From the NCBI GenBank assembly GCA_019022495.1, contig JAFEKR010000037.1, positions 496,001 through 560,000 on the forward strand: a stretch of 64,000 bases of DNA. The letters are read 5' to 3'. Below, one piece after another: positions 32,440 through 57,144 of this stretch. The translations under genes and the position numbers were made by a program. The notes beneath the pieces are model-generated. The model saw nothing but the letters and a program-made list of their open reading frames with translations. It ran no database searches and was not told the DNA's origin. The DNA comes from Epichloe hybrida. Taxonomy: Eukaryota > Ascomycota > Sordariomycetes > Hypocreales > Clavicipitaceae. The first letter of the stretch is position 1; the number at the start of each line of letters is the position of its first letter.

Positions 32440-32690
32440 GAAAGGGGGGAAGCTAGGAAGGAAGGGAGGAAGGATTAGTGGAAGGAAGGAAGGAAGGAAG
32501 GAAGGAAGGAAGGAAGGAAGGAAGGAAGGAAGGGGAAGGAAGGAAGGAAGGAAGGAAGGAAGGAAGGAAGGAAGGAAGGAAGGAAGGAAGGAAGGAAGGA
32601 AGGAAGGAAGGAAGGAAGGAAGGAAGGAAGGAAGGAAGGAAGAGAGGAAGGAAGGAAGGAAGGAAGAAGAACAGGGAAAAGGGAAGGGAC
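32440..32690. repeat. GGAA tetranucleotide microsatellite
   Basis: About 210 bp of nearly perfect GGAA units (32478-32690) with a degenerate lead-in from 32440. Purine only on the + strand. It begins about 45 bp upstream of the start codon of the minus-strand gene 31621-32394, so it lies in that gene's promoter region. Confidence 0.9.
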
Positions 32691-32699
32691 AGATTATTA

Positions 32700-33423
32700 T
32701 GTGCGTGAAATGCTTTAATTAGCTAGTTACCGCATTTCAGCTATCTACGGAGTATTCCCTTAGCAAAGCTCTCTGCCTGCATGCTAGCGCTTATAAAGAT
32801 AGTTTTTGTTAGACCGCGAAGCTAGGGTTAAAATAAAGACATGGGTTAAGTTAATTCACCCTATAAGAGGATGCGAACTATAGGTTAAATAACTAAGTAC
32901 TAATACAAAAAGGAAATATAATTTACCTATATAAAATATACTATATATTTACTAAAGTCCTGGAAAAGGACTAGGGTCTTATAGTCTAGTATCTTAGATT
33001 ACTATATGCAGACCTTTGCATTCGTAAAAGAGGGCACATTAGAATGTGACTCTGACATGTACCTACATACGTTCATTAATCATTAAATCAGCCAGGGCCT
33101 CTGGATGACGTGGCATGCTTGGCCTGAATCATGCAGCCACCCTATCCTCCGTTTGAGCCGCATTATTCGCCATCAAGATTAGCCATTGATGTTAGTTGGG
33201 CATATCCATGTCACCTTTTGGCACAGCGCTACATTTGCTTTCACAAAGCCCAGAGATGCCTGCCTAGACATCAAGTTCCTGAAGACCAAAAAATATATAT
33301 ATAAGAAGGTGGTTCACGTCTGTCTTTGAAAACCAGAACTAGAGCATCTCTTAGATATCCACCACGAAAATCCCTATTATTTAATCCCTTCTTGAGCTCG
33401 CACCTAACCCACGGGAAAACAAC
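32700..33423. promoter_or_regulatory. Intergenic region; TATA-like box before the 64-aa gene
   Basis: About 720 bp without a gene. The left part (32720-33010) is AT-rich and RIP-like; composition normalises after about 33010. A TATATATATA run at 33292-33302 lies ~120 bp upstream of the ATG at 33424 and is a plausible TATA element. I see nothing else definable. Confidence 0.4.
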
Positions 33424-33712: not shown

Positions 33713-35315
33713 TTAGCATGCGTTATGCTTGAATAAAGATCGAAGCTGTAACTGGTATCTTTGTTCATCAGCAACTTTTGTTTTTATATGATCACTGGCA
33801 TCTTCCTGCCAGAAGAAGGACATTTGTTTGAGGTCCTTGACCAATCTTTTGACTGATGAGAATCTGGGGAGGATATGATCCTCAAAGATGAATAACCAAC
33901 CATTCAGAGACCTTATACAGGCCCAATACCACACTCCCTTTGAGTCCCATGTATCTCTCATTATCTTTGTAATCTGAATGTCATGCTCAACTTGCACATG
34001 TGGCAATTCCTTATCCATACTTGCCAGAAATTCCTTTCGCGCATTATCAAAAGGCTCATACTGATCAATAATTGTATCAATACTGCAATTGGTAAGCCAA
34101 TAGGGAACAGACATCATCTCCACCGGTAGCGCGCAAACCCATTCAAGATCAATTAGGCAAGTAACGTTCCACTCGTCGTCCACAAGAATATTGCTTTGGT
34201 GAAAGTCGGTTGGCTGCAAAAGGTAAGGGCCACTTCGTCGCTCTGACAAGGTAAAGAAATGTGTAACTGCACGAAGTAATGTCCGAAGAGTCATCCGCTC
34301 TTGGGCGTCATCCTCGTTTCGCACAGCATGTGGATCATGTAGCAGATAGTTGTCATGCAGTGTCAGCATATCAGACGCGAAACTATCTGTGCTCTGGTAG
34401 AGTCGGTCTGGTGGGATCGTTCTTGGTGTTCCTCGTTGCTCGAAAATAGCCATGGCACATGTGAGAGGCCGATTTGAGAGTGTGACTGTGCAGTCTAGTG
34501 TGTTAAATTTGAAAGATCCAATATACGGCTGTGGAAGACGGGCGAGCGAGAGCATAATTCGAGCCATGCCCGCGAATAAATTCTTCCGTCGTGCTGTGTC
34601 TGACAAATGATCAGACCAGGTGATCGAGAGCATTTTCCCCGTCTCGGGACCGATATATTCCAAAAGCATGTATGCGGTACTGACGGCTGGGGCAGCTGAA
34701 TCGCGAACATAGTCTGAGAGAATTGGATAGCGAAGATACCGATACACCCACTGCCAGGCCTTGCGGCAAAGGCTGGTGTAGACTGATGTCTGCTGGACGC
34801 GTATAAACTATGGTAAAACAAAGTATAAGTATCAGGATGGATGTCATAGATAATGGCAAGCTAGAAATACTTACACGGTTATCATCTGTAAAGCCAAATG
34901 CAAAAAGATCCGGAATACGAATATTGGGGCAATGTTCCTGCATCCATATGTATGTTGCTACTTCACAGCTGATCTTCTCGTCGATCGTGCCGGGATGCTG
35001 TTGTTCGGCGTGAGGGATGGGGCAACGGAAAATAAGCTTCTTGCTTAAGTTACCCGCATTCACATCAACCAGAACGCAAACATTGAAGTTGCCCTGTATC
35101 CATGTCTCGCGTGGCAGGACTGTGCAGGTGTCATTTGGACGTAAACGAAGATGATGTCTGACTAAGGCTGCAATTGATTGCCTTTGATGCCAAAGTTCGG
35201 ACTTGAATTTCCCTGCTGCATTATGATGCTTGACTAGGAAAATAAGATTGTCTTCCGACTCGGCGGCCGTTTCCAATGTATGGACTTTGTTGTGTAATAG
35301 GATTTGTTGCGCCAT
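33713..35315 (-). CDS. APH-fold phosphotransferase family protein
   Basis: Two exons, 35315-34875 and 34807-33713, joined across a 67 nt GT-AG intron (GTAAGT...CATAG, phase 0), give 511 aa. The start at 35315 (MAQQILL) is preferred over an in-frame ATG 54 nt upstream because it begins the conserved part. The C-terminal lobe carries the APH catalytic signature DFHQSN at about residues 348-353 and the metal-binding IDLEW at 366-370. In fungi such aminoglycoside-phosphotransferase-like proteins form a large family, mostly of unknown substrate; drug resistance should not be assumed. The N-terminal lobe (Lys in LIFRCP region) is weakly conserved. The gene is next to the diterpenoid cluster and reads away from it; whether it belongs to the pathway is open. 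Confidence 0.8.
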
Positions 35316-35940: not shown

Positions 35941-36468
35941 TCATTCGCCAAATAACGGAGAAGATAAAGCTAAGTGTGAGGCATTTTCGGTGCAGGGTCG
36001 TATCGGCGGCTACCTCTTTAACATGAAAGGCTCGTAGCCAAGAATAAACACACGGAATATCACTGCGAACTTTTGGTCAAGTTCTATTTTTAACCTCGGG
36101 TGCCCCTGTGCCACTAGACCGAACCACACCTCCAGAAACAGTAATCCCCCCTGCGTATTATTGATAAATCGTTAAAGACCATCGGGTTTACCTGGAGGTC
36201 CCTCCTTTTAGCTAAGTGACAAGTTATCGACATGCCTCCAATCCAGATATAAGATTGGCACTGCCATCAGTGCCCGTGTACGCGAGTACCCGACATCTAG
36301 CACACCTGGGTTCTAACACTTAAGCTAATGATAATTAAGCCAGCAAGAACAAAAGACGAATTTAGTTCTTGTTGGATAATTTGAAGTGTTTCACAGTGCC
36401 TATGTAAATATTCATGTGAAGGAATTGCATTTGAACACATACTACTAGCTAGAGTCTGTCTCGTTGCC
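35941..36468. other. Intergenic, nothing recognised
   Basis: About 530 bp of mixed composition downstream of the GGPP synthase stop codon. No gene-like frame, tRNA or repeat is seen. Confidence 0.4.
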
Positions 36469-38232
36469 CTATGAGGAGAGTCCTTGTATTTTTAGTGAAT
36501 TCATGATATTGCGTACTTCCGGGTTATGTATCCCAGTACAAGTCTCAATCTCAGAAATCTCGCTCTCTATATCAGAATGTAGTATTTGCAGCGCCTGCTT
36601 GGTGTAATCGAGAGATCCCGCGGCACGTAATAGATCAATGAGCATCTCCTTGTGGCATTCCGTGGCGCGGCCAACTGCACGGCGCTGAATGAGAAAGTTC
36701 CGCAATATCTTGCGAGATGTAATATCCGCGTTTATAAGCGCGTGTATCAAAGTGAAGCTGTATTTGCCTTCGTCTAGGTCCTCTGCAAAGCCCTTGGTCT
36801 TCCTATACTATTTGGCGGGTGATGTATGGTTAGCGTTTTGTTTCTTCTCAATCAACATTCGCTCGATTGTATAAAAGCCTATAATGTACCTGATCTGACG
36901 TGAGGTTGGAGAAATCGTCACGGATCTGAAAGAGTCGCCCGAACAGGGTCATGAAGCGATCTAGATCGGCAGGCTTCGTCGATGACTGGGATTGAGCAAT
37001 CATCAGTTTTGATATCATGCGAAACAGCCCACCCGTCTCTGATTCAATGAACAAGTCAGTCAGTTGAGTCACGGGCAGAAGCGAAAAAAAGAATTGCACT
37101 CACTCCCATCTACCATCCGCAGGTAATCATCGACAGAAGGCTCTGAGACGAGATGTGTCCACAGCAGATCATGCCCTTGCCCGATAAGAAGGTGCTTCAT
37201 TTCATCTTCATCCACGGCCCATTAGCTCGTGAGTTCAGAGCCATAGGTTCCAATAAGTTGCAGGGAAGAGTGAAAGCAGATGGGAAAGGGTGAGGAAACT
37301 TGGAACCATCATACCAATCACCACGCCTAGCGACGAGGCATCGCCGAGCTGAAGAACACGCGAGAGAACATGTACAATTTGATAAGTGGCTGAATTGACG
37401 GCCTGTGGCATACCGAATACGCAATGTGTTGCCGGTTTCGAACGCCTCATTGGCGAATCGTCCTGCACATCGTCCAACCTGATGTCCACCGAAGTGTTTT
37501 TTGTCAGAACAAACTCCGGATAGAATAACCCTCGTTGCGCGTATGGGAGGCTTGAAACAAACTGGATATTGTGTGTTGATGCTGGCAAAGATGGAAACTC
37601 ACATGAGAGAGAGATTATGCACGTCTCGCACGACGGACTTGACACCGGCGAGGACATGTTCCGGTACCCCAACCCATATATTTATCGCATTGATGAGCTT
37701 GTCTCTCACTCCCTTTGATGGAAGAGAACTGATGTACTCGAATGGTGCCATGACGGGCTGCAATACATCAAATCGTCAGTACAATCTACAACTCCGTTCT
37801 GTCGAGTTCACCTTGCATCTCACTTACGTCTGTCGTAGCCGGAGTCATACTAGTATCACAAATCGTTGCCATGATCGTTTCCTGATGCGCGGCATCTCCA
37901 TTCAAACCTCGAGCTCGCGTTGACTCATTTAGTGTCGGGGATTGCTTCATCTTTGACTTGCAGCTATCTGCAGTAAAATGCCTTGTGTTGCCAACATTGT
38001 ACTCGCCGTCTTGGCCATCAATGTTGGCTTGTCCTGACGCTTTGAGACGTTCCTCGCGTGAGATTGAATCAGACGCACCAACTTCCGCATTGCGCGGTGT
38101 TGCATCCAGTACCATTATGGGGAACATTGTCGAGCCCCGTGTCACTGACTGCTTGTCCAAACTGTTGTGTATTACTGAGTTGTCCCGGAGAGAGTCGATC
38201 TCGATATAGGGGTTGTCGTTGGCGCTGGTCAT
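36469..38232 (-). CDS. Geranylgeranyl diphosphate synthase (cluster GGPPS)
   Basis: A trans-prenyltransferase that would condense isopentenyl diphosphate with allylic diphosphates to GGPP, the C20 precursor for the adjacent diterpene synthase. Six exons: 38232-37828, 37757-37603, 37478-37315, 37205-37104, 37038-36890 and 36807-36469, with five GT-AG introns of 65-124 nt, giving 437 aa. The first aspartate-rich motif is DDVQD (residues 189-193, followed by SPMRR) and the second is DDFSN (316-320, in FQIRDDFSN), each intact with Mg2+-binding acidic residues. The GQGHDLLW, KTGGLF and GFAEDLDEGKYSF blocks are typical of fungal GGPPS. The first ~135 residues are a Ser/Thr-rich extension before the conserved core (APFEYI at ~139); an ATG 63 nt upstream (38295) is an alternative start. 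It is probably a pathway copy, separate from the housekeeping GGPPS. Confidence 0.93.
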
Positions 38233-38295
38233 AGTTCCCAGCTGGCTGCGGTTCTGTCGCAATGCAAAGAGTTCTGTAAAAGCTGATGTACGCAA

Positions 38296-39348
38296 TGATC
38301 AGAACCAAATGTAAGACAAGGGTGTACATCCAGTCTTCCTTGTTCATTTGGCAGGCCTGCTTTGGTAGACGGATTGTTGTTGAGAGTCTGAAAGGAGAGA
38401 AAGGCAATGTCCCAGGCAAGTTACTCGTACAGATCATTCTATATACGACTCACCAAGGGCTGCATGTTTTGAAGCAAGGTATGCGATATTTGGTAATCAA
38501 CACCGCGTCGTCCGCCTTTTTGGCGCAAAGCCGACCTTCGGCGAAAAAAAATCAGCCCGGCTGACATATCTGACATGTTGCATCACTAATGCAGGCCGAC
38601 TCGGCTATCCGCTTTCGTACTGGCCTGACAGTCTTCCGGAGGCTCTCGGAATTGAGCTGAGAGGGCTGACGCAAACCCCATACAAGACTATTTTCCAATA
38701 CTGATAGTAGATGAATAGTTTCGGCAGTACATAGTACATTCACTACGTTTTCCGCAACCAACATTGATAAAGTAGGGGTTGTCTTTCAACGGTTGCGAAT
38801 GCGTAACACTAAAGGTGGCATGCATGGAATACTCAACTCTCTGTGTTTCCCCAGCGCCAAAGCGTTGTGGGCAAATTGCAGTGAGACAAGCTCGCAAAGA
38901 CAAGTACCGAACGATGAGAATGCCCTCTAGTAGCTAAAGCGTTATGTAGCATCATAATAATAGGCGGGAAGTGCTGTTTTATAAAACGTGTGCTTAACTA
39001 CATCAACTAAACTTGGCCTACGTAGGAAGTAAGAAGCGCTGTTCTCAAAGATTTGACATTCAAGCTTGCTGATGGAACACAACTCCCAGCGGGCACCCAT
39101 CTGTCTCTACCTTACCCAAGGTCAACACAATTTCTAGCACGTCAAGGTGCCTTGTATAAATGTATTCGCTCTTTCTCACCAAGCTTCACGGTCATATAGA
39201 CAAATAGTCAAGGAATTGCACAACAAATGCCACAACAGCTAAGAATAAGTATCCCTTGGTAAACTGACGCAATTTTTACATAACAAGGCTGCCTCGTGTA
39301 AAATAGTAGTCAGTCGTTCAAACGAATTGCATCTTATCAATGAGCTTC
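38296..39348. promoter_or_regulatory. Upstream region of the GGPP synthase, no clear gene
   Basis: About 1 kb between the GGPPS start and the P450 remnant. On the minus strand just upstream of GGPPS, a frame (38361-38240) starts MNKEDWMYTLVLHLVLII and encodes a hydrophobic helix. It could be an upstream exon adding a membrane anchor, but an intact splice link is not evident. The remainder (38440-39340) has scattered small frames that match nothing I know. Confidence 0.35.
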
Positions 39349-39835
39349 TTACGCCACATTCCACTGCTCCAGTTCAGCACCAATAGACAGTATATGCTCG
39401 ACGTCGCTGCTCCTGTCACATCTTTCGCCCATCAAGATTTTGACAGACGGATCAGGGAACATGTTCTCGTCAGCAAACCTGTTTTCGGAACGCCCTTTCT
39501 GATTTTCCTTGTACTTGAAATCGTAGCGTAGTAACATATGTGCAAACATGATCTTAATTACAGCAGATGCGAAGAACCGTCCGGGACAGGCATACCGTCC
39601 AGCACCGAAGTGTAGCAGAGAGCCGTCGATAGTAGACAGCTGGAATCGGTTCTGGTGCTCCGAATCGTCAGGTTCACGCTCGAAGCGGAAGCCACTTTCC
39701 AGCCATATTTCGAATCTGACCTACGCTGGAACTACTGTGGCTGTCCGGCAGGTTTCCAATCTCCGGCAGATATTTCTGGTTCATGACGAGAACGTTGGAG
39801 TCATTGCGGACAATATAGAACATGTCGCCCTTGAA
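39349..39835 (-). pseudogene. Cytochrome P450 relic with internal deletion
   Basis: The minus strand carries both ends of a P450 fused together. At 39835-39755, after a splice-acceptor-like TATAG, comes the N-terminal text FKGDMFYIVRNDSNVLVMN followed by KYLPEIGNLPDS, which parallels the same region of the intact P450 at 48954 (VLRRYDTDITVLPIKYLDEL). This runs straight into the C-terminal third: RTATVVPA, an in-frame TAG stop at 39721-39723, then ESGFRFEREPDD and the heme loop FGAGRYACPGR (about 39630-39590), ending at stop 39349. The central part, with the I-helix and ExxR motif, is missing (roughly 300 residues), and the two halves are in different frames. It cannot make a working enzyme. 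The heme loop itself is intact, so the loss may be recent. It lies inside the cluster and was probably a pathway oxidase. Confidence 0.85.
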
Positions 39836-40521
39836 CTATATAGCGAGTCCAATGGAATTTAAAAGGACAGGGGCGGCGTTGTGTCTGATTTCCGGGCCAA
39901 GTCGCCCTTCAATTGGATCTGAGAGCTAAACTGTTCGGAATGTTGCATTGCTTACAATGTGTCGCAAGACTTCCCCTTTGAGCCACCCGAGCCAAGGGCC
40001 GGCCGATTGGCCATGTGCGTTCTGGCTTCGGAGCTGGGGTACAGAAATACATGCCTGTACATGATGACAACTCGTGAGACGTGAAGCTTATGGCAGCATA
40101 ATTGGAGAGCAGATGCTGGAGAATGTATGTGTATTATGCGAGATCCTATGGCTGCCTGAAGTAGTTCGCATCATAGACACCGGGAAAGGCATCGGCAGTC
40201 ACCCGGGCTTATTACTTTCTGGTATACCAAGTCGGGCAATCAAAGGGATTTATTGAGCCCGCTCATGCGAGAGTCCTGAACCCTGACGAACCTATTGATG
40301 TGAACCCTGTTGGATATTGCAGCGTCACTTCGCTCTCCCTGATCAGAGACTGACAGCAACACGGCCAGAGCCTGCTAGATCGTCTGATGACCCCATAATC
40401 TTTTCCCTCGAATAGCATCACGTAACAAAGATAACACATCGTTGTATTCAGCCACTGTATTGATGCAATCGATGGCTATACAGGACCTCTGTTTCCTGTC
40501 CCGCCATGCTTTCGCTTTGCA
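39836..40521. other. Intergenic; possible leftovers of the P450 5' exons
   Basis: About 690 bp between the P450 relic and the aldo/keto reductase stop codon. Composition is gene-like, but no continuous P450 N-terminus (membrane anchor, Pro-rich hinge) can be read on the minus strand. Probably decayed coding DNA. Confidence 0.35.
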
Positions 40522-41653
40522 TTATGCTGCGATCACGTCCCACAACTGTTCAATCGCAGTGACAATTTCTAGAGGTAACGGACCCCTCTGAATGAACTCC
40601 ATGTTCTGCTCAATGTAGTTCGTCTTGGTTGCCCCGATGATTATTCCATCATTAGCATTCAACTGCGAGTGGTAGCTGATCCAGCGCAAGGCCGCCTCAA
40701 TATTGGAAATTCCAGCTGGAGCGAGAATGTCATTCAGGGTGCGAATTGCGCCATGCAGCTCCTGTTTATCATACTGCGCTTTCAGCGAAGCAGCAGTTTT
40801 ATCATCCCCACCGAAGCGAGTGCCGTCGGAATCCCCAGCCGTGAATTTGCCGGATAGGAAACCAGTCGCAACAGGACTGCATGTTCAACTGCGTTAGCAG
40901 TGTAACTTGATGCCGATTTCAAAGGGTCGCGGCGACTCCGGTGAGACGAGGAAAGTCCAACAGATCAGCGTCTTGCAGTCTTACCTGTGGGCGTTGAAGA
41001 TGATGCCATGCTTCCGCAAAGTGGGAAATAGTTGTTCATGCCCTCGACTTATTAAACTATAAGAACCCTGGTAGACGGTGGGCCGAACGTAACCCTCGCG
41101 GTCACAGATCTCGACAAACTCGGTAAGCACATCCAGGGGAAAATTGGACACACCAAGCTATGTGATAAAACTCGAGCTGTCAGAGTCGCTTCATGTCTCA
41201 TGGGATGCACATTTAATGGACTGATAATACCTGCTGGAAAAGACCGTTCTTATGCATCGCATCAAGAGCTGCAGCTTGTTCCGTCAATGGCGTCGTGAAA
41301 TCCGGCGCATGGCAATGAACAACGTTCAGCTTGCTTCCTGCCTGGTACTGCAACCGGTCGATACTGGCATTGATGGAATCTCGGATCTTGGCCGGCTCGA
41401 GAGTGCCATTCGCGTCTTGACTCATTACGAGAATCTTGGTGTCGATTTTGAAGCCGAGTTTGCCGGCGCCGACTTGGCCAAGCAGAGTCTCCGACATGCC
41501 AATATTGGTCCATGGATACAGGGCAGCTGTATCGATTTCATCAATTCCGCAAGATTTGAGGACCTGGAGGAGATGACTGACAGCTTCGGGTGTGTCGAAA
41601 GCCTCTCCGATGGTGGAGCCTCCAAAGATGATGCGTGGGTGGGAGGGAGCCAT
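40522..41653 (-). CDS. Aldo/keto reductase (AKR7-like)
   Basis: NADPH-dependent reductase of the aldo/keto reductase superfamily, which would reduce an aldehyde or ketone on the pathway intermediate or detoxify one. Three exons, 41653-41231, 41157-40985 and 40876-40522, with GT-AG introns of 73 and 108 nt, give 316 aa, the usual length of AKR7 (aflatoxin-aldehyde-reductase-like) proteins. The start is MAPSHPRIIFGGSTIG; an in-frame ATG lies upstream but adds no conserved sequence. The catalytic tetrad is complete: Asp41 and Tyr46 (DTAALY), Lys73 (KIDTK) and His115 (VVHCHAPD). The cofactor region at the C-terminus (IIIGATKTNYIEQN) is present. The enzyme is cytosolic (no targeting signal). It is divergent from the diterpene synthase, with an 856 bp shared upstream region. 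Confidence 0.92.
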
Positions 41654-42509
41654 GTCAATGAGATGGATGGCTTTGCTTATTACTGTTGAGTGGCAGCAGC
41701 AGCAGGATGAATGCGTAAGACGGCGGTCGAAATAAGCGTTCAAGACGGGAGGGTCGGTGACGTTTCTCAGGGTCAATGCATAATTGAAGGGCATTTGCAT
41801 TTTATATCAGCTGATCTGAGGGGTCGTGAGTCGTGACAGCTCAACCGACACCTTCCGTTGATGTTAACCGTAAACGTTAACGGAAATTTTTTTACTGCAT
41901 GTTTACGTGTTGCCTTCGTTGCCTTCCGTTGTACTACCAACTGGGAAGGTGACAAATCGGTGCGGCCATGCTTGATTGATTTCCAATACCAGCCACCCTA
42001 TCAGCTTGTCTTCAGGGTTTTGGTTTGTCAGCGCTACCTCACCCAAAATGTCTACATACATGTAGGATCTCGGGATTATGTAATGATCGGACGTCCATTT
42101 ACGGAAGTGGACCCAGGCTCTCGGCAGCCAGCCAAAGTTGGACAGCCGAGGCCCGACCCGAGACCCGAGACCCCACAGGATTGATGTTTTGCTTTCGCTA
42201 TGACTCGATGCGATGATGCCGGGCTTCATCCTGTTGTCTTGTCGCCTTGTACTCCGTAGAGTCAAGTTGCCCACCGACCATCATGCTGCCGTTCCGGAAT
42301 CCGCAGACGAAAAGGGAGGCCCGACATCGAACGCTTGCAGCCAATCGCAGGACGGCCAGGCCTTGGTGGTCCAAGATCAACATGGTTTGGAACAGGGTCG
42401 GCAGGTTCTTATCTGACCTGTTTCCCCAAACCTCATGTTGGACCCTTCGAATATGCTGATTCGGCCTACAGAGTAAACATAGAGCTTTTGCATAGGCTGT
42501 AAATGTGCA
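41654..42509. promoter_or_regulatory. Shared divergent promoter of reductase and diterpene synthase
   Basis: 856 bp between two divergent start codons. It contains a short inverted motif GTTAACCGTAAACGTTAAC (41863-41881) and CCGAGACCC units (about 42150-42175) that could bind a zinc-cluster regulator. No regulator gene is seen in the window. A shared control region would allow both genes to be switched together; this is inference. Confidence 0.45.
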
Positions 42510-45500
42510 ATGTCACAAATGGGTCAACACAGCCAGCTGAGCAACCAGGCGGTTTCCCTCATCCAGCGGGCGTTAGATGGTCTTGATGATCGGTATGGCT
42601 TCGGCGCCATGACATGCGCTGCCTACGATACAGCCTGGGTATCTCTCATCAGCAAAGTGGTCCGAGGCGAAAAACGATGGGTTTTCCCCCAATGTTTCCA
42701 ATATATTCTGGACACCCAGTCTGCTGATGGTAGCTGGGGTCGCAATCCCAGGTCTCAAATTGACGGCATCCTGAATACTGCGGCCTCGATCTTGTCGCTC
42801 AAACGTCATTTAACAGAGCCTCTTGGCCAACAGGCCATGTTCAATGATCTCGCCGGGCGGATTGAAAAGGCTGTTGCTTCACTGCATCATCAGCTACTGG
42901 AATGGGACGTCGCGGCCACCACGCATGTCGGTTTCGAAATAATTGTTCCTGCAATGCTGCGTTATCTCCAGCAAGAAGACGACACTTTTGTCTTCCATTT
43001 CGCTGACATGGAAACTTTGGGCAAGATTCACGACACCAAGATGTCCCAGTTCAAGCCTGAACTGCTCTACGGCAAGACCGCTTCCACAGCGCTGCACTCC
43101 CTCGAGTCGTTCATAGGCTTGATCGATTTCGATAAAATGTCTCATCATGTAGTCCATGGCTCCATGATGGCTTCTCCTTCCTCGACCGCGGCATATCTGA
43201 TGAATATATCCAAATGGGACTATGAAGCAGAGGAGTATTTGAATCATGTTATCGCATCTGGCACCGGAAACGGGAGTGGAGGCGTTCCCAGTGCCTACCC
43301 TTCCATGCATTTCGAGTACACTTGGGTACGTCAATCCGCTTATGATCCTGCTCATGAGCTATTCTCAATTTTTCTCAAACGTCAGTCTGCCTCCAGCTTA
43401 TCAAGTGATTATATAGATCCTGTCAACACTGCTCAGAGCTGGATTCACTCCCTCAGACCTTCGATGCCCTGAACTATACCGAATGGAGGAGGTTCTGGAT
43501 CTGGCATTCGAAAGTGGCTCAGGTCTCATCGGGTTCGGTAAGAATATTTGTCGAATCGGCGTCGGGCGTTTTACAAAGAGAAGAGTCTAATACACTGGCT
43601 ATCTTGCCCCGACAGGTCCGCATCTCCCTACTGATCTCGATGACACCGCCAAGGGAATTTTATGTCTTGTTGGTCTTGGCCATTCAAAAAGCGTCGACAA
43701 AATGATTGAGGCCTTCGAAACCGACGATCACTTTCGAACATACGGGCAGGAGCGAGATGCAAGCTTCAGCGCCAACTGCAACGCCCTATCTGCTCTGTTG
43801 TGTCAGTCGAATGTGGCACAATACTCGACCCAAATACTCAAGGTGGTTCGTTTTCTCTGCAATCGCTGGTGGAATTCGGATAACGGGATAAAGGACAAGT
43901 GGGTAAGATAATTTGGAGCATATGCCTCGGATTGCTGAAAACAAAGATGCTGATGCATCTTGACAGAACTTGAGCCATCTCTACTCGTCCCTTCTTTTGA
44001 CCGAAGCGCTAGTTGACTTACTCGTCCACGTCCAATCGGGCGTACTGAAGGGTGCTCTCGACCAGGAGCTACAGTCTAAAGTGTTCATTACTCTTTTCCA
44101 AGTCGGTCTACGGACACTGTTGCAAATGCGAGACGATGGATCCTGGAATCACTCAGTCGAGGAGACTGCTTATGGAGTCCTCACACTATCCAATTCAAAG
44201 CGACTGTCGTCATGGTTTGACCTTCAGCAGCCTCTTGACTCGGGAATCGAACGTGGAATTGCATTCATACGCGGACACCATACCGAATCAATTCACTTGC
44301 CAATCTGGATAGAAAAAGTGAGTTATTCATCCTCCTTACTTACAGATTGCTACGTCGTGGCTGCGCTCAAAGCAGCCACCTCGCCATATGGCAGTGCGGA
44401 TGTGAACGCCGGCCTTGGTATCAGTCATGGGTTTGGGAAGGGCCGAAATGTCGTCGATTTGTTTCAGCAGACACCCATGTTTTCGGAAACACCAGAGTGG
44501 CAGATCCGAGCGTCGATGGTTGAGTCAGTATTGTTTCAACCCCTCCTGCGCGCTCGCCGGCTCGACATATTTCCCAGGAATGGCATGGAGGAGGATAAAT
44601 ACTTTGACATTATCCCCTTAACCTGGACGAGCTGTAATAACCGGCACTGCACATTTGCTTCAACAGCATTCATATATGAGATGATGATCATTTCTTTCCT
44701 CAACTACCAGACCGACGAATTCATGGAAGTCGTCGCGGGCGCAGCCTTTCGGGGCCGCGCGAGCACCCTTCGTACTTGTATTGATGGAATTTTCTTTCCC
44801 GAAGACCGCAGAGCCGACAAGTTCAATGGAAGCCATGGCAGTGATGGTACCGGTAAGATAGCAGGTTCAGACGTTTTACTTCCGCTTCACAAGTTCGTCA
44901 CACATGTCGCATCTCATCCTGCCGTCTTGGCGGCAAACCCATGGGACAGACAGTGTATGAAGCGCGAACTGCATGCATTCCTGCATGCTCATGTGACTCA
45001 GAACGAGGACAATACGCTGTTCCACCGTCGGAGCGAAAATGGAACATCTAAACACAACCTCGAGTCGCGCCAGACCCAAACTTGTCATGCTTGGGGCCAA
45101 AATACCTTCTTCCAGTGGGTTCGCACCACGTCTGCCGACCACACTTCCTGTCCCTATTCCTTTTACTTCGTTAGCTGCTGGCTCAGTAGCTTCCACTTGA
45201 ATGGCGCAGAAAGCTTCCCTACAGTTCGCGAGAAGTACCTTGCAGCGGCGACATGCCGACATCTCGCGTCCATGTGCCGCATGTACAACGATTATGGCTC
45301 CGTTGCACGAGATGCTGCCGAGAATAACCTCAATTCGGTCAATTTCCCAGAATACGACACCAGTGGTGATATTGAAGACAAGAAACGAGCGCTATTCGAA
45401 CTCGCTGAATACGAGCGCTCCTGTCTCAACGATGCGAAAGCCCGATTAGCAGAATGGTCACACCCAAGGGTTGATAAATCCACCACTGGCGCCCCAAAGG

Positions 45501-45598
45501 CTCGACTGATGGATATTTGGCAGATGTTCTGTGATGTGACAGATCTCTACGGACAGATCTATGTCGTGCGTGATATTGCTAGCCGCCTTACGTCTTAG
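42510..45598 (+). CDS. Bifunctional diterpene synthase (copalyl diphosphate synthase / kaurene-synthase type)
   Basis: The core enzyme of the cluster. Exons 42510-43325, 43417-43537, 43616-43902 and 43967-45598, with GT-AG introns of 91, 78 and 64 nt, give 951 aa, almost exactly the length of the fungal CPS/KS enzymes of gibberellin pathways (about 950 aa). The class II half has AYDTAW (about residues 38-43), QSADGSWG (70-77) and the proton-donating DxDD motif as DLDD (319-322), followed by TAKG. The class I half has the metal-binding motif as DEFME (658-662) and the NSE motif [12 protein letters not shown] (849-860), both intact. GGPP would thus be protonated and cyclised to a copalyl diphosphate, which is then ionised and cyclised to a hydrocarbon or alcohol. 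The product could be a kaurane, pimarane, aphidicolane or related skeleton; stereochemistry cannot be read from motifs. It is cytosolic, with no signal. Confidence 0.95.
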
Positions 45599-46057
45599 AG
45601 TTAACTATCCCTACCTTATGGAATAGCTTTATTTTAGTCATCTCAACGACTCTCTTTTATAAAGTAGCTTCAATTATACATGTACGCTTTTTTTTTCTTG
45701 TTCATACATTTCCCTACTTGGGCATGGTTCATTATGACAAGCAGCTAGGCCAAATGGCCAAAAACAGAGTGCGCACCCCTAATATAGCTGCGGTCATTCG
45801 AGCATCTAAATACTTAACAAATTATGTCTATATCTATCTTAGGTACATTACATGACTCTATAGTAAACAGTAGCAAATCTCCGCGAAGAGTAGTGGGATT
45901 AGTAGACAATAGCGTATTGACGAAATTTGTGCGAAGCATGAACATGATATTCTAAACGGTCTATGGTACGAAATACAAACTTTACTCGAGTTGTCCCTTG
46001 TACAAGTGTATCCTGAACACACATCGCTTTACATCCTCATTTCTGCGAAGTTGTCTT
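45599..46057. other. Convergent 3' intergenic region
   Basis: About 460 bp between the stop codons of the diterpene synthase (+) and the FAD oxidoreductase (-). AT-rich in places and gene-free; presumably contains both 3' UTRs and polyadenylation sites. No hairpin terminator is expected in a eukaryote. Confidence 0.4.
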
Positions 46058-47955
46058 TCAGGTCTTTCTCAATAGAAATCCATCGTTCTGCAACCTTTGA
46101 AATACCTGCAGGGGGTCATATCGTCTGCTAATCGCCTTCAAACGATCGAGGTTCTCAGCACCGTAACTAGCCAACACGTTCTGCATGAAATTGGCGTCGT
46201 TCATCACTTTTCCCTCGATGTACACCCCTCTCGCTTTTGCAAGAACTTCTACCTTCTCGGTGTAGCGCTTGATAGCTTCTAGGGCTGTTTTATCGTCAAT
46301 GCGATCTTTCCAAGTAACGTAGTACGTCAAGACTAAAAACGGTGTCTCAGCTCTCGTTCAATCCATATTTTTTTCGGGCTACTTTGTCAAGCTTACAGTT
46401 TTGCAGGATCGGTTCAAACCCAATGGGATTACCTCCTGTTTTGGAAGAATATCGCAATGCAGAGCTTGTAAATGGTTGAACCACGAAACCCACTGATGCA
46501 TTGAACTTTTTGACTTCGGCCGCTAGTTCAAGGAACATTGAATAGCTTCTCCTCAGTGTTACTTCATCAAACTTGTATACAACAGATCCAATCATGCGCC
46601 TGTAATAAGTGATCAGATTGTGTTTATCAAGTCTGAAGATTGTTTCGACCGTTACCTGGCTGTTTCTAAGAGCGTTATATCGGATACAGCGTTGCCGAGC
46701 CTAGGCATGTCCCCGATTGTCGAGTTGAAGACGAATTTGCTGACGGGAATGTCGTAAAATGCGTCATACGCCTTGGGATAAACTACAGGCTTGCCGTAAA
46801 CGAACTGAACGAAACCCGACTCTGGAGTTATGAAAAACGTGATGGCGGCATCGGAGTCTTCTTCCGCCGCGTGTGCGTACTTCAAAATGGCATCTAGTAG
46901 CTTGTCACTTTGTGAGGGATCATAGCTACGACCCTCAAACCATAGTGGGAAGTTGTCCACGGTTTCAAAGTCGTATCTCGTCACAATGCCTACAACACAG
47001 AATTAGTGAAAGTGCCTGCAAGAAACGTACGATGAATTGACGATACCGAAGTTTGGGCCACCGCCCTTCAACGCCCACCACAAGTCCCTATTCGATGTGG
47101 CATTTGCGTTGACCATGGTAGAGTTTGCGAGCACGATCTGTCGGTCTTGATCAACATCATGTCAAGATCTCGCCTTGAGTTTTACCACGCACCTCGTAAT
47201 TGATAATGTGGTCTGCTGCAAAGCCATACCTGCTACTGAAGTATGTCAATCCGCCGCCGAGCATGTATCCGCCTATCCCTACAGCGTTAAGACGCGGACC
47301 CATGATTGTTTTGCCTACTGTGCCGAGCGTTTCATACACACGTCCGGCACGATTTCCTGCGCCGATTAAGACAACAGATTTGTCCTTGCTAAGTGTGATA
47401 TCATCGAGTGCTGACATGTCGATGAGGATGCCGGGACTGTCCATGCTTGCAAACCCAGGGTTAGGGTTATGCCCACCGCCGCGTACCGCAAACTTGGAAC
47501 CAAGAAATGTGCTGATGAGGAGGATGTTCGATACATCCTTTGCGGTAGTCGGACGCACAATGCACCTTGGCTCGAGCCAACATGTTTCGGACCTAGGGGG
47601 GCCACAGTTAGGCCAAATGTGATGTGACGCTTGAATGCATTACTCACCAATTTACTTGCACCAAGTCCGTATAACCTGGCGTAGACGGACTAGACACGTT
47701 CGAACGACCGAGGACGGCGCGTATGAGTCCACATGTCATGGATGATTTACTTTGGTCGCTGAATGCCGAGATATCCGAAGCGTCGAGGCCACGCAGTGCG
47801 TTTACCAAATGGGTTTCTGCCTGACCACTGAAATGAAGCTTGGAAACCAACTCTTGGACATCTTGTATGTTGCTGTACTCATTCACCCTTGCGCTGACTC
47901 TACAGACATGTTCCAGAGTCAACGAGAGGGCACATATCAAGATATCACGACGCAT
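46058..47955 (-). CDS. FAD-linked oxidoreductase (berberine-bridge-enzyme-like)
   Basis: A flavoprotein of the PCMH-FAD plus BBE family, common as oxidase or dehydrogenase in fungal secondary metabolism. Six exons: 47955-47648, 47592-47193, 47137-47047, 46989-46656, 46599-46397 and 46332-46058, with five GT-AG introns of 55-64 nt, give 536 aa. The FAD domain has [19 protein letters not shown] (His at about residue 144 is the likely covalent FAD site) and [13 protein letters not shown]. The second cysteine ligand of bicovalent members (the CxxCG type) is absent, so mono-covalent flavin is expected. The middle has [19 protein letters not shown], and the BBE tail [15 protein letters not shown] ends the protein. 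A hydrophobic N-terminus ([14 protein letters not shown]) may be a signal peptide; an ATG at 47967 is an alternative start. Substrate unknown, but its position between cyclase and P450 points to diterpene tailoring. Confidence 0.92.
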
Positions 47956-48953
47956 TGCGTCTCCCACAAACCAGAAACAGAAGAGTCAACCTCCCTTGCT
48001 GATCTGCGATCCGGATTCGACCACTCTCTGCGGCCGATGACAAGCTGACGAGAGATTAGTTTCTGCACTGCACTGACGCCTTACTGCAAGCCAAAAAAAA
48101 AAAATTAAGATGTGAAGAAAGTGTATCGTGAGTAGGTTGCATGGTCGAATTGCCTCAAAATCCCTGATAATATGGGCATACCCTGAGAATAAGTCCATAA
48201 ATGAGTGGTGAGTGAGCCTATCAGGCTCGCCGCCACTTCGACATCCTTGCAGGAGGCCTCGTTCATCAAGGCGATTTGCATCCGAGCCAAGAAATATCGT
48301 CCGGACCGATCCTAAGAGGCGGAGCCGCCGAACGTCTCATTCGTCGGGCGTCGGGCGTCGGGCGTCGGGCGTCGGGCGTCGTGAGAATGCTGACACGGGG
48401 AAGGCTGCCCCGGTTGTACGGACCGTAAAACATTACGTTACACGGTAAGCCCCGTCCCTGCCTACATATGAGGCTCGGTCAAGCCTTCTCGATCACGAAT
48501 GGTTTAGTCGCCGACTTTGTTCTTGGCTGGGCAAAATTCGGCCGGACTTGCCTCATCGATTCGGGCCGGACCCAAAATGATGTACGAAAAATAGCAGTAG
48601 CTGATCGCGAGAGGTAACGCCGATGGCGAATGGGTCAGGCGAAGTTGCGACTTTGAGCCGATATCTATGTCATAAGCACAGCTTGTAATGTCGGGATTAT
48701 AGCTTAAAATGTCGGAAGCACTCGGGGCTTTGACCGTTTCAAATCATCTCAAATCAAAGGCACAGCAGTGATGCGGTATAATAGATACTGCCAGAAATAT
48801 GGAAGCATGCTAAACTCGTGGTAGGAGAAGTAGCATAACACAGATCAATCATCCTCAATTGAGACTCACAGCGCATACTTCACTTCACTCTTTGATCTTT
48901 CTGCTGGCTTGTTACTTCAAAACCCTATCTGAAAGTCTGTCTCCCTTGGTCAA
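47956..48953. promoter_or_regulatory. Divergent promoter of FAD oxidoreductase and P450
   Basis: About 1 kb between divergent start codons, with no credible gene. It holds a perfect tandem repeat of five GTCGGGC heptamers (48343-48377) and, near 48660-48720, a short repeated phrase (ATGTCGGGATTATAGCTT / AATGTCGGAAG). A shared regulatory region for the two tailoring genes is likely. Confidence 0.5.
48343..48377. repeat. Five tandem GTCGGGC heptamers
   Basis: Perfect 7 bp repeat, five copies, followed by a partial GTCGTG. It lies roughly midway in the divergent promoter between the FAD oxidoreductase and the P450. Each unit contains TCGGG, a half-site shape for zinc-cluster (Zn2Cys6) factors. 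Confidence 0.7.
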
Positions 48954-50892
48954 ATGTGTGACACGCAGCATACAATGGAAACAGATAGTATTCACGCCAT
49001 CGGAACTCGCGCTGTCGACTTCCTGACACATGCAAGCTATACCAAGATATCACTTCTCGCAGCTCTCTCCCTGGCATTTGTCTCGTTTCTCGGCAGAAAG
49101 CCCAGTCCTAAGATTGCGAATGCTCCTTTCCATGGGTATCGATCAATTTTTGAACCAACACTTTGGTTGCAGATCAGATTCACCATTGATGCCTACAACA
49201 TCATTACGGCTGCGTACAAATCGGTATGTCCACTCTACATTCATGTGCCAAATATTCCGTATTTTGTTTAGTGTTATTAGCTGACGCCTCAGTTGCCGCA
49301 CCGGTAGCTCAAAAACGTCCCTTTCGTGCTGCGTCGTTATGATACCGATATCACGGTTCTTCCAATCAAGTATCTCGATGAGCTGCGCCTCATCCCGAGA
49401 AATAAACTGAATGGTAAAAAGGCCCAGGTCAATGTAAGGGGCTGCGCCATCCCCTGCCCACTACTCACGGTAGATTTCGCTGGTAATGACACTCATCCTG
49501 TTGCAGAATCTTGTTCCCGAATGGACCTGGACTCAAGTCATGATGGATTCAGACTTGCACGTGAGCGTTTTGAATGCCAAGTTGAACCCGGATCTGGCCA
49601 AATACATGGACATTGCCCACAGCGAGCTTGAATACGGCTGGGACATTGACGTGCCCAAGCCCGAAAGTAAGCGCACTTTTGATTCCTCGATGGACGCATA
49701 CCAATACTGGTAACAAAAGAGTCTCTGAAACTACTCAGAACAGTCATACTGACACCAGAACTTGTAGATTGGACCGAGGTTGATGTCCAGCAGTCCATGC
49801 GTATGCTCGTGGCCCGCATGTCTGCCAAGATATTCATGGGCTATCCAGCATGCAGAGATGACGAATGGCTAAAGGTGTCTATTAATTTCACCTACGACAT
49901 GTTCATGGCCGCCTTCTCGTTGCGCATGTTCCCACCTTGGCTGCACCCCATTGTGGCTCATTTTGTTCCCGCCCGCTGGCGCATTCGGAAGCAGATGAAA
50001 GTGGCAAGACGATTTGTGGAAGATGTCACTCGGAAGCACGTGGAAGCAAGTCTCAAAGGTGAAACTGGTCAAGACACTCTGCTGGAATGGATGATTGACC
50101 ATGGGACTGAGAAAGAGAGAGCTATACCAGAGATGGCTGCGCGCCAGTGTGTCTTGACTCTTGCCAGCATACATACTACTTCCATGAGTGTGAGCAATCT
50201 GCTGTTTGACCTGTGCTCTCACCCAGAGTGGTTTCCGGTCCTTCAAGACGAAATCGACAGCGTCATCAAGGCGCACGGGGAGCTTGGAAAGACGACTCTG
50301 GGCTCCAAACAGTGGCTGTCGAAATTGGAAAAGATGGATAGCCTGATAGTAGAAAGTCAAAGGATCAACCCCCCCATTTTGCGTAAGTGCATTTCGTTCG
50401 ACTTATACCCTTGCCTCTCTTCATTGAAACTTACGCCTCGTACCGTGGCGCGACTCAGTCAACCCTCAGAGGATAGCTCTAGTGCCTCTCACGCTCAAAG
50501 ATGGAACTGAAATCCCAGCCGGTGCCAGAATCGCTTGGGCCGGCTACCATCACGCCAATGACCCGTCCGTCATTGACAGACCCGAGGAATTCGATCCTTT
50601 GAGAAGCTACCGCAAGCGCTACGCAGACCAGGGAGTGAACTTGAACAAGTTTATCGCTGGGCAAACCAATTCCAGTAGTTTGTCGTTTGGGTACGGCAAC
50701 CAGGCCTGTCCAGGGCGGTACTTTGCCGTTGGAGAGATCAAGATGATTTTGACGAGGCTGCTGCTGGAGTTTGAATTCAAGTTTCCCGAGGGCCACTCTC
50801 GGCCCAAGATCATGCATGCGGATGAGAACGTTTTCATGGATCCGCACGCAAGGCTGATGATGAGAAAGCGAAACAAGGCTTTGGGACGCTGA
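48954..50892 (+). CDS. Cytochrome P450 monooxygenase
   Basis: A membrane-anchored heme monooxygenase that would hydroxylate or further oxidise the diterpene. Exons 48954-49223, 49308-49433, 49507-49666, 49768-50382 and 50459-50892, with GT-AG introns of 73-101 nt, give 534 aa. An N-terminal anchor lies at about residues 29-47 (KISLLAALSLAFVSFLG); an ATG seven codons in (METDS) is an alternative start. The I-helix oxygen-binding segment reads ASIHTTS (318-324) in place of the usual A/GGxDT, as in several fungal secondary-metabolism P450s. ESQR (381-384) is the ExxR motif, and the heme loop FGYGNQACPGR has its cysteine at 474. The general texture resembles the CYP68 group of gibberellin-type P450s, but I cannot assign a family firmly. 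It is complete, and its N-terminal region resembles the broken P450 at 39349. Confidence 0.94.
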
Positions 50893-51357
50893 CAGTGGTG
50901 CATGGACGCCGACTCGCGCACATTCTTTGTTGGGTCAAGTATCGGTCAGATCTCGTGGACCCCTTTCCAGCAATTTGTGCACAGGAAATATAGGTCACAG
51001 AGGTTCAAAATCAAGAAAGCAAATGTAGTCTCTTGATGTTAGAATAAGCATAATGTGAATCTGCGGCCCACCTGCTTAGGCTGACCGTAGCCGCAATCCG
51101 TACATGTAAACCCGTGCGTGGCTGCGGTCGGCCCGAGCAGGTGGGCCCGCAATGACAATTGGAGGCGCAGAAAAAAAAAAGGCAACATCAGCCCCAAGCA
51201 GAATAACTCGTCTATTGTCTACCGACTATTTAGTCTGCTTTAAACCCTCCGTCCGACCTCAATTGGGGAAAACCGCGAGCACCAACCAACCCCTCCTTTC
51301 TCAGTGCCTCCCCGATTGCAAGCGAGCTCTTCCATTCTCGCTGGAAAGCTCCTCACC
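50893..51357. other. Intergenic boundary between cluster and ornithine carbamoyltransferase
   Basis: About 465 bp holding the P450 3' UTR and the promoter/5' UTR of the next gene. The main feature is the large inverted repeat at 51062-51151, described separately. A pyrimidine-rich stretch at about 51240-51350 precedes the start codon. Confidence 0.45.
51062..51151. repeat. Inverted repeat / foldback element at the cluster edge
   Basis: Left arm 51062-51095 and right arm 51119-51151 are imperfect reverse complements over ~33 bp (TGCGG-CCCACCTGCT... against ...AGCAGGTGGGCCCGCA), with a loop of about 23 bp. It could form a strong hairpin in DNA or RNA, or be a very small MITE. No clear target duplication is seen. 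Confidence 0.65.
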
Positions 51358-52572
51358 ATGATCACCATGAAACATTCACTTCACACAGCCCGCCTCGCCG
51401 TGAATGGCCTCCAGAAAAGAGCCTACTCGCAGTCCTCCACTTCCGCGCCCCGACATCTCATGTCCATAGCCGACCTGACCCCCGCCGAATTCACCTCTCT
51501 CGTTCGAAATGCTGCCGCTCGCAAGCAGAGCGTCAGGGCCGGCCAGACGCCGACATGGCTGAGTACGTCCTTGTCCGGCCAGACCATTGCCATGATATTC
51601 AGCAAGAGGAGTACGAGGACACGAGTGTCTACCGAGGCGGCGGTCAAGATCCTAGGTGGCCATCCAATGTTTTTGGGCAAAGATGACATTCAACTTGGTG
51701 CATGTGCTCCTCCGAGTCCTTCTTGCGCCTGTGACCTCATCCTCGTTCCTATAGAGTACTAAATTTTTTTTTTTCTCCGATGCATAGGTCAATGAGTCTC
51801 TTTACGATACTTCAGTGGTCATCTCATCCATGACATCCTGCATGGTCGCCCGTGTCGGCCCTCACGCCGACGTCGCCAACCTCGCCAAGCACTCCAGCGT
51901 GCCCGTCATCAACGCCTTGTCCGACGACTTCCACCCCCTCCAGACAATCGCCGACTTTCTGACCATCCACGAAGCATTCCCGTCATCGTCCAAGACCGGC
52001 TTGGCCCTCAATGGCCTGAAGGTTGCTTGGGTCGGAGACTCTAACAATGTGCTGTTTGACCTTGCAATCGGGTGCGTCAAGACGGGCGTTGACATCTCCG
52101 TTGCGTCGCCCAAGGGCTACGGCATCCCCGACGCAATGAAGCAGCTCATCATCTCCGCGGGAAAGGGTGTCGACTCGCCGGGTAAACTCAGTGAGACCAC
52201 GGTCCCTGAGGAGGCCATCAGGGACGCCGATATCTTGGTCACGGATACATGGATTTCCATGGGCCAGGAGACCGAGAAGCAAAAGAGGCTAAAGGCTTTC
52301 GAAGGGTACCAAATCACAAATGATCTGGCAAAAAGGTCAGGGGCCAAGGAGGGGTGGAAGTTCATGCACTGCTTGCCTCGACACCCCGAGGAGGTTGCCG
52401 ACGACGTGTTCTACAGTCCGAGGTCCCTAGTCTTCCCTCAGGCCGAGAACCGACTGTGGGCCGCGGTTGGTAAGTGGCGCGACGCGTTTCCCCCATCGAC
52501 CTTGTACATACAAGCGCTAATCGTTCAAAAGCTGCGCTAGAAGGGTTTGTCGTTAATAAGGGCGAGCTGTAA
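51358..52572 (+). CDS. ARG3: Ornithine carbamoyltransferase, mitochondrial
   Basis: Transfers the carbamoyl group from carbamoyl phosphate to ornithine, forming citrulline for arginine synthesis in mitochondria. Exons 51358-51699, 51788-52469 and 52532-52572 give 354 aa. The carbamoyl-phosphate loop is SKRSTRTR (82-89); the ornithine-side motifs are DTWISMG (267-273) and HCLPRH (308-313), with the catalytic Cys. The N-terminus is basic and Ser-rich without acids ([19 protein letters not shown]), a mitochondrial presequence. Intron 1 appears to use a GC donor (GGT|GCATGT, 51700) with AG at 51787, because no GT donor keeps the conserved [11 protein letters not shown] reading. Intron 2 is a normal GT-AG intron. 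It is a single-copy primary-metabolism gene and marks the end of the secondary-metabolite cluster. Confidence 0.96.
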
Positions 52573-53431
52573 AGATTACATCTCCGGCAGAGCCATTGGA
52601 CGGGACAATGTGAGGAGGGTGGAGCTGGCACGCGCCGAGCAGCGAGCGGGCTCAGTCAGAAATTAGCAGATAGATGACATGTACGGAGTACGGAGTCGGT
52701 GCTTTTAATACAGTTCTCGGATTTCGGACACTGCATTGTGGGCTCTGTTTTCTATTTGCGAAAAAAGGCAGTTTTGGTTGCACTACATATGCTCGTATAG
52801 CGATGTCGCAGCAGTCTTCGCCTGCTGTTCATGATGTGGTGTTCACCGTTTTGTCATGGCAAAGTTAAATGATTGAAATATCAATTTTCGTAATTGTGAT
52901 GATAGCACTCTTCATTTTGAGAAGCAATACCAGCAGCTTATGGCAACTTTGCCTTTCGGAGGAAGATGATGTTGTATGTAAACACCAACTTCTTACATTC
53001 TGGTCTGGAGGTTGGACCCACAGCCAGCTTGTGAGTGGCTGGCCTCGAGCGCTTTGTGAGGCGCGCCTTAGGTAATGCAGCGAATCAGAAGACAGCCAGA
53101 CTTTTGAACTGGAGAACCCTTGTCGATGGATCATTTGTGGTGCGGTCGTGTCAGGCAATTTTCTGCTTCTTGCCAACATGGCTGTCTCTGCCCATCGTAA
53201 CAGTTGAGAACCATATTCATTTGTCCAACAGGCTTGCGCATCGCTTGCCTCCTTCATGGTGCCGTCGCATCAGCCCAAAACCACTCACGATTCATTATTC
53301 TTGTCCTCGAGAAGCCGCACGACCCGCAGCAGACTTCCCGCATCGATAAATTCGCCTCGCCCACACAAGCCCGACGAGCGCATTGCAGAACGCACTTTTA
53401 TTCTTTTAATGGTTGGACTGGACTGGACAAA
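52573..53431. other. Intergenic, no gene seen
   Basis: About 860 bp between the carbamoyltransferase stop and the KH-protein start. Balanced composition, overlapping small frames on both strands but none convincing. It presumably holds the 3' UTR of the first and the promoter and 5' UTR of the second gene. GTACGGAGTACGGAG at 52681-52695 is a short direct repeat. Confidence 0.4.

Positions 53432-57085: not shown

Positions 57086-57144
<59 letters not shown>

What the first reader, a model, noticed from the sequence alone, without database searches (positions are those of the whole stretch)
36469..50892. Apparently undescribed diterpenoid gene cluster
Seen in sequence: GGPP synthase, bifunctional class II/class I diterpene synthase, aldo/keto reductase, BBE-type FAD oxidase and P450 lie within 14.5 kb, plus one dead P450. 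Known: fungal clusters for gibberellins, aphidicolin and pimaranes pair GGPPS with a CPS/KS-type enzyme and P450s. The combination with an AKR7-like reductase and a BBE-like oxidase, and the absence of the gibberellin desaturase and multiple P450s, does not match any of those that I know. Inference: a distinct oxidised diterpenoid.
Basis: partly seen in the sequence, partly recalled or inferred. Interest (0 to 1): 0.78.

Follow-up and report, generated by a model that had tools for sequence, protein, structure and literature searches.

The report
Diterpenoid gene cluster in grass endophyte
A grass-endophyte fungus, most likely an Epichloë hybrid, carries five intact neighbouring genes that look able to build an oxidised diterpenoid whose structure is unknown to me; its central genes were counted once in a 2015 survey, and two unusual partner enzymes lie near related synthase genes in several other fungi.

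Summary
Window 36469-50892 carries five intact genes: GGPP synthase, AKR7-type reductase, bifunctional diterpene synthase (DLDD; DEFME and NSE-type motifs), BBE/EncM-like FAD oxidase and one P450, plus a P450 remnant. It is not wholly undescribed: three catalytic stretches match the di-TPS listed for Epichloë typhina (55 of 57 residues) and E. amarillans (53 of 57) in PMC4617483, each reported there with one GGPPS and two P450s; the other sequences scored reach at most 36 (nine table rows) and 41 (119 homologues). The host is therefore very probably Epichloë, apparently a hybrid (79.9 Mb; 91%-identical second copy of the flank). That second copy keeps only a broken FAD oxidase and a broken P450. 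AKR and/or FAD oxidase share a contig with a related synthase in eight other fungi, more weakly in two further ones. No characterised enzyme that I could identify falls in the window's clade. Best reading: an oxidised labdane-related diterpenoid of unknown structure; a new member of a known kind.

The parts
36469..38232 (-). GGPP synthase gene, 6 exons, 437 aa, DDVQDD motif
   Evidence: splice model; PF00348, 1.1e-49
39352..39720 (-). P450 remnant: C-terminal fragment with haem-binding loop, rest missing
   Evidence: PF00067 9.3e-8, profile 400-453; 38% identity to the cluster P450 over 87 columns; other matches in 36300-42400 are short, with E 0.27 or more
40522..41653 (-). AKR7-type aldo/keto reductase, 3 exons, 316 aa
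   Evidence: PF00248; best solved relative aflatoxin B1 aldehyde reductase 1gve, 2e-47
42510..45598 (+). Bifunctional class II/class I diterpene synthase, 4 exons, 951 aa; AYDTAW 38, DLDD 319, DEFME 658, NDYGSVARDAAE 849
   Evidence: model; homologues; motif positions; tree
45728..45858 (.). Short dispersed repeat (perhaps a MITE) between synthase and FAD oxidase
   Evidence: 38 of 41 reported matches fall on this stretch, about 42-124 bases each
46058..47955 (-). BBE/EncM-like FAD oxidase, 6 exons, 536 aa, hydrophobic N-terminus, RGGGH (RSGGH in relatives)
   Evidence: PF01565; EncM and BBE-like structures; motif in 15 of 16 relatives
48954..50892 (+). Cytochrome P450, 5 exons, 534 aa
   Evidence: (PF00067, 1e-37)
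51788..52540 (+). Flank: large exon of ornithine carbamoyltransferase, right boundary of the cluster
   Evidence: PF00185, PF02729; 91% identical copy on contig C102

Best explanation
A five-gene labdane-related diterpenoid biosynthetic cluster of an Epichloë grass endophyte (apparently an interspecific hybrid), present in intact form in one subgenome only. Proposed working: the dedicated GGPP synthase supplies GGPP; the bifunctional synthase protonates and cyclises it at the class II site (DLDD) to copalyl diphosphate and ionises that at the class I site (DEFME, NSE-type motif) to a tri- or tetracyclic scaffold; the P450 hydroxylates it; the FAD oxidase oxidises the new alcohol or dehydrogenates the skeleton; the AKR7-type reductase reduces a carbonyl so formed. 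Shown: gene structure, motifs, near-identity to published catalytic stretches of the E. typhina/amarillans di-TPS, same-contig partners in other fungi, relic in the second subgenome. Inferred: host identity, hybrid nature, order of steps, scaffold and stereochemistry, expression.
For: Five intact reading frames; both catalytic sites intact; 55 of 57 residues shared with E. typhina_a of PMC4617483, at most 41 with the 119 homologues scored. AKR and/or FAD-oxidase relatives on the same contig as a related synthase for 8 of the 120 listed synthase homologues, with near-adjacent locus tags in Cytospora schulzeri (VMCG_03253/03254/03256) and Diplodia seriata (SLS54_003053/003055), plus two weak cases. 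dN/dS of the window copy against the relic: 0.255 for the FAD oxidase (376 codons), 0.16-0.34 for four P450 exons, 0.088 for the flanking OTC exon, so these two genes evolved under purifying selection for part of the time since the lineages split.
Against: No product, transcript or activity data. One P450 is dead, and no copy of synthase, AKR or GGPPS was found at the second-subgenome locus, so the pathway is dispensable and may be shortened here. 110 of the 120 listed synthases show neither partner on their contig in the listed rows, among them the closest named one, Lecanicillium saksenae P0001 (61%). dN/dS below 1 does not say which lineage was constrained, and synthase, AKR and GGPPS could not be tested this way.
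Confidence: 0.75

Rival explanations
1. The cluster is in decay: the synthase still makes a hydrocarbon or alcohol, but the original end product is no longer made because one P450 is gone.
For: P450 remnant at 39352-39720; PMC4617483 counts two P450s beside the E. typhina and E. amarillans synthases; the second subgenome keeps only a truncated, frame-broken FAD oxidase and a P450 lacking most of one exon.
Against: The five remaining genes are intact, and FAD oxidase and P450 show dN/dS well below 1. In the related fungi AKR and FAD oxidase are the partners seen; their P450 content was not examined.
Confidence: 0.3
2. The synthase makes only copalyl diphosphate or a bicyclic labdane, the class I site being inactive in practice.
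For: The E. amarillans synthase varies inside the class I motif (DEIME), and PMC10512213 reports several Magnaporthe di-TPS without activity in E. coli.
Against: The window synthase has intact DEFME and NDYGSVARDAAE; A. nidulans AN1594 with DEFME is reported as an ent-pimara-8(14),15-diene synthase (PMC3323652).
Confidence: 0.12
3. Chance neighbours: AKR and FAD oxidase belong to other pathways.
For: Both families are large; no co-expression data are at hand; 110 of 120 listed synthases show neither partner on their contig in the listed rows.
Against: Same-contig linkage with related synthases in eight fungi, in part on contigs of 19,675 and 48,577 bases or with near-adjacent locus tags.
Confidence: 0.08
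4. A gibberellin-type (ent-kaurene) cluster.
For: CPS/KS-type synthase with GGPPS and P450; the host genus lives in grasses.
Against: Proteins named Fusarium kaurene synthase and a Claviceps enzyme form a separate starred clade; 24 of 57 catalytic-stretch residues shared with F. fujikuroi; one intact P450 against the four listed for F. fujikuroi.
Confidence: 0.03

Closest known systems
Di-TPS regions of Epichloë typhina E5819 and E. amarillans E57 (Fischer et al. 2015, PMC4617483, Tables 1 and 2)
   Same: Synthase catalytic stretches 55 of 57 and 53 of 57 identical; one GGPPS and P450s nearby.
   Different: Two P450s counted there, one intact plus one remnant here; that survey looked for GGPPS and P450 only, so AKR and FAD oxidase there are unknown; no product given in what I read.
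Uncharacterised cluster of Cytospora schulzeri (VMCG_03253 AKR, 03254 synthase, 03256 FAD oxidase)
   Same: Same three gene types, near-adjacent; 66%, 60% and 56% identity.
   Different: P450 and GGPPS content there not examined; no product known to me.
Diplodia corticola and D. seriata clusters
   Same: Synthase with AKR (both) and FAD oxidase (D. corticola) on one contig. Diplodia species make pimarane-type diterpenes (sphaeropsidin C, diplopimarane; passages of PMC9609704).
   Different: Synthases belong to a different clade; that these clusters make those compounds is my guess.
Aspergillus nidulans ent-pimara-8(14),15-diene cluster AN1592-AN1599 (PMC3323652, passages)
   Same: GGPPS, DEFME-bearing bifunctional synthase, one P450.
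   Different: Has HMG-CoA reductase, short-chain dehydrogenase, methyltransferase-like protein, EF-1 gamma-like gene and Zn2Cys6 regulator; no AKR or FAD oxidase among the cluster genes listed. Its synthase is not in my tree.
Magnaporthe oryzae MoDiTPS2 (normal pimara-8(9),15-diene; PMC10512213)
   Same: Same enzyme family, with GGPPS and P450s.
   Different: Elsewhere in the tree if P0094 is MoDiTPS2, which I inferred (46% identity).
Gibberellin cluster of Fusarium fujikuroi
   Same: GGPPS plus CPS/KS-type synthase plus P450.
   Different: Four P450s and a desaturase there (PMC4617483); separate synthase clade.

Membership tests
Fungal bifunctional (CPS/KS-type) diterpene synthase | Class II DxDD motif | tested here: met
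   DLDD at residue 319
Fungal bifunctional (CPS/KS-type) diterpene synthase | Class I DExxE motif and NSE-type motif | tested here: met
   DEFME at 658, NDYGSVARDAAE at 849
Fungal bifunctional (CPS/KS-type) diterpene synthase | Full-length homology | tested here: met
   61% identity over 99% to P0001; residues 9-553 match solved copalyl diphosphate synthase 9q3i, 5.8e-141
Fungal bifunctional (CPS/KS-type) diterpene synthase | Converts GGPP to a cyclised diterpene | not testable with these tools
   needs expression and GC-MS
Gibberellin cluster | Synthase in the ent-kaurene synthase clade | tested here: not met
   (rows named kaurene synthase by their source)
Gibberellin cluster | Four P450s | tested here: not met
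   one intact P450 and one remnant in the cluster
Gibberellin cluster | Desaturase | not tested
   no profile was run for it
Epichloë di-TPS locus of Fischer et al. 2015 | Catalytic stretches of E. typhina_a / E. amarillans_a | tested here: met
   55 of 57 and 53 of 57 identical; nine other table rows typed reach at most 36 (the remaining rows were not scored), 119 homologues at most 41
Epichloë di-TPS locus of Fischer et al. 2015 | One GGPPS and two P450s nearby | tested here: inconclusive
   one GGPPS, one intact P450, one P450 remnant; the paper's additional files were not read
AKR7 (aflatoxin aldehyde reductase type) | Sequence closest to AKR7 among solved AKRs | tested here: met
   1gve 2e-47; next three also aflatoxin aldehyde reductases; then a drop to 8e-20
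Berberine bridge enzyme-like FAD oxidases | FAD-binding domain PF01565 with flavin-histidine motif | tested here: met
   PF01565; RGGGH in the window, RSGGH in 15 of 16 relatives
Berberine bridge enzyme-like FAD oxidases | C-terminal BBE Pfam domain (PF08031, number recalled) | tested here: not met
   not reported at E 0.001; EncM-like relatives

The most novel reading that the evidence does not exclude
An AKR7 reductase and an EncM/BBE-like FAD oxidase form a hitherto unrecognised tailoring pair that has been carried across several orders of Ascomycota and coupled to different CPS/KS-type synthases; in Epichloë it makes a further class of endophyte metabolite beside the known alkaloids, working from one parental subgenome of a hybrid.
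Probability: 0.35. Interest if true: 0.62.

Novelty: new member of a known kind. Interest (0 to 1): 0.42.

Why it matters
[quoted passage not shown] An intact non-indole diterpenoid cluster would add a product class to these symbionts and gives an ordinary handle (gene removal, extract comparison) to test it. The recurring AKR + FAD-oxidase pair also marks a set of fungal diterpenoid clusters that could be mined together.

Tried and rejected
Gibberellin cluster: rejected on tree and P450 number. GGPPS seemed broken in the raw frames; with GT-AG introns it is intact. A first AKR splice model gave 13 internal stops and was replaced by another acceptor. Second copy of the cluster on contig C93: the C93 end is 100% identical to window 50149-64000 (4866 + 8986 bases) and stops inside the P450; it may be an assembly overlap. 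(whole cluster as DNA query) did not list the window itself, so its silence proves nothing; some searches were used instead. Homeologue of the left flank of the C102 relic: only the stretch itself and short dispersed repeats matched. Shared promoter repeats: each of four stretches was searched for repeats within itself; two had none, one had a 14-base tandem in the FAD-oxidase/P450 promoter, one a 15-base pair that may be chance. CAS-2024a was first counted as firm linkage; its FAD-oxidase hit is 34% identical, 937 aa long and lacks the flavin-histidine pattern, so it is now counted as weak. Literature: ten searches; among the papers they listed (up to 15 each, of up to 385 found) I saw none on a non-indole Epichloë diterpenoid except PMC4617483, and none describing a fungal diterpene cluster with AKR plus FAD oxidase. 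The library holds open-licence papers only; MIBiG could not be searched. SonA of Paraconiothyrium archidendri (P0065) may be a characterised enzyme; one search found nothing on it.
Full report
Observation. The window is G000:C88:496001-560000 of a 79.9-Mb assembly in 156 contigs. Between an AT-rich block (GC 0.26-0.38 in 2-kb windows up to about 30 kb) and genes for ornithine carbamoyltransferase, a KH protein (weak match, below cut-off) and TRAPPC13 lie five intact genes: GGPP synthase, AKR, diterpene synthase, FAD oxidase and P450. The 19 introns are GT-AG and 55-124 bases long, and no final model has an internal stop. Pfam confirms four of the proteins. The synthase has no Pfam or NCBIfam match, but 438 homologues (120 listed) and the motifs of both active sites. 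Only a C-terminal P450 fragment remains between GGPPS and AKR.

Host and prior description. Fischer et al. 2015 (PMC4617483; section 6 read in both parts, passages elsewhere) list di-TPS of Epichloë typhina E5819 and E. amarillans E57, each with one GGPPS and two P450s. The host is therefore very probably Epichloë; no named record confirmed it. The flank has a 91%-identical copy on contig C102, and several prenyl-synthase and P450 genes come in near-equal pairs. With haploid Epichloë genomes of about 29-35 Mb and a hybrid of 55 Mb (PMC8147782, passage), an interspecific hybrid is likely, though 79.9 Mb exceeds that figure. The synthase itself occurs once.

Relic in the second subgenome. On C102, left of the 91%-identical OTC flank, only window 46649-49736 (86%) and 50295-51153 (84%) align; nothing of window 36-46.6 kb does. 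What is left is an FAD oxidase without its last third and with frame-breaking insertions, and a P450 that lacks most of its fourth exon. DNA searches for synthase and for the GGPPS-AKR stretch found no close copy outside the window (one 83-base match elsewhere); AKR paralogues are at most 40% identical in the aligned pieces. NG86 estimates, window against relic: FAD oxidase dN/dS 0.255 (376 codons); P450 exons 1, 2, 3 and 5: 0.335, 0.227, 0.176 and 0.163; OTC exon 0.088. The two genes were thus constrained for part of the time since the split; the numbers do not tell in which lineage, nor when the other copy was lost.

Conserved linkage. I took the FAD-oxidase rows with 465 bits or more (16 rows, P0121-P0136; the next row, P0137, is a 347-aa protein with 52% identity and 393 bits) and the AKR rows with 304 bits or more (27 rows, P0241-P0267), and matched species and contig length with the 120 listed synthases. 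FAD oxidase with synthase: 5 firm (Cytospora schulzeri, Xylaria telfairii, Annulohypoxylon maeteangense, Xylariaceae sp. FL0662B, Diplodia corticola) and 1 weak (Pleosporales sp. CAS-2024a: 34% identity, 937 aa, no flavin-histidine pattern). AKR with synthase: 6 firm (C. schulzeri, Nemania abortiva, Diaporthe helianthi, FL0662B, D. corticola, D. seriata) and 1 weak (Daldinia caldariorum, on a 3.9-Mb scaffold). All three gene types: 3 (C. schulzeri, FL0662B, D. corticola). Together 8 firm and 2 weak of 120 synthases. AKR and FAD oxidase also share a contig in Rosellinia necatrix, with no listed synthase on it. Misses: the other 110 synthases show neither partner in the listed rows, Lecanicillium saksenae included (P0003, a piece of the window's own synthase from unnamed reads, is among the 110); Metarhizium majus has the nearest FAD oxidase (77%) but no listed synthase. 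That these fungi belong to several orders is recalled.

Phylogeny. In a quick maximum-likelihood tree (LG+G4, SH-aLRT only) of 61 rows (60 of the 120 homologues, chosen by me, plus the window) the window groups with L. saksenae (99) inside a six-row clade (97) with C. schulzeri, D. helianthi, X. telfairii and N. abortiva; four of these five relatives have an AKR or FAD oxidase on the contig. Aphidicolanol synthase of Phoma betae, both Phomopsis amygdali enzymes, the M. oryzae enzyme, SonA and proteins named Fusarium kaurene synthase fall elsewhere; the A. nidulans pimaradiene synthase was not in the tree. Diplodia lies in another clade yet has the same partners, which suggests that the pair is not tied to one scaffold. 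Rows were matched to Fischer's names by their DxDD stretch; an Arthroderma uncinatum protein matched the A. otae stretch in the same way, so such a match can be shared by relatives. That P0094 is MoDiTPS2 is my inference.

Mechanism. GGPPS, synthase and P450 roles follow from established fungal labdane-type pathways (PMC10512213, parts 1-3 of 4 read; PMC3323652, passages). The FAD oxidase has a hydrophobic N-terminus, RGGGH where 15 of 16 relatives have RSGGH, and no cysteine in the GxGG region where bicovalent BBE enzymes have one (the comparison with those enzymes is recalled). I infer that it oxidises an alcohol made by the P450 or dehydrogenates the skeleton, and that the AKR7-type reductase acts on a carbonyl. 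Scaffold, stereochemistry and end product are unknown.

Verdict. A real, intact cluster; the core was noted in print in 2015; I saw no description of the partners in the listings of ten searches of an open-licence library. New member of a known kind, of moderate interest.

Noticed in passing
G000:C102:3443218-3447100 (L046): Second subgenome carries a decayed relic of the cluster: broken FAD oxidase and broken P450 next to an OTC whose large exon has no stops; synthase, AKR and GGPPS not found there.
   Followed up: yes
window 50149-64000 and contig C93 end: 13,852 bases are 100% identical to the end of contig C93, which stops inside the P450; possibly an assembly overlap.
   Followed up: partly
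G000:C89: Contig with further polyprenyl-synthase matches (57262, 11782) and nine P450 rows; perhaps an indole-diterpene (lolitrem/janthitrem type) cluster, a guess from recall.
   Followed up: no
window 45728-45858: Short dispersed repeat with 38 further matches in the assembly, between synthase and FAD oxidase.
   Followed up: partly
window 33716-34807, minus strand: APH-like phosphotransferase reading frame (PF01636 0.0033, below cut-off) left of the cluster; membership unknown.
   Followed up: no
Metarhizium majus ARSEF 297, P0121: 77%-identical FAD oxidase on a 14.8-kb contig, no synthase of that species among the 120 listed hits.
   Followed up: no
window 30500-30900 and 32450-32720: Long purine/pyrimidine simple repeats, seen as low-complexity reading frames, at the edge of the AT-rich block.
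   Followed up: no
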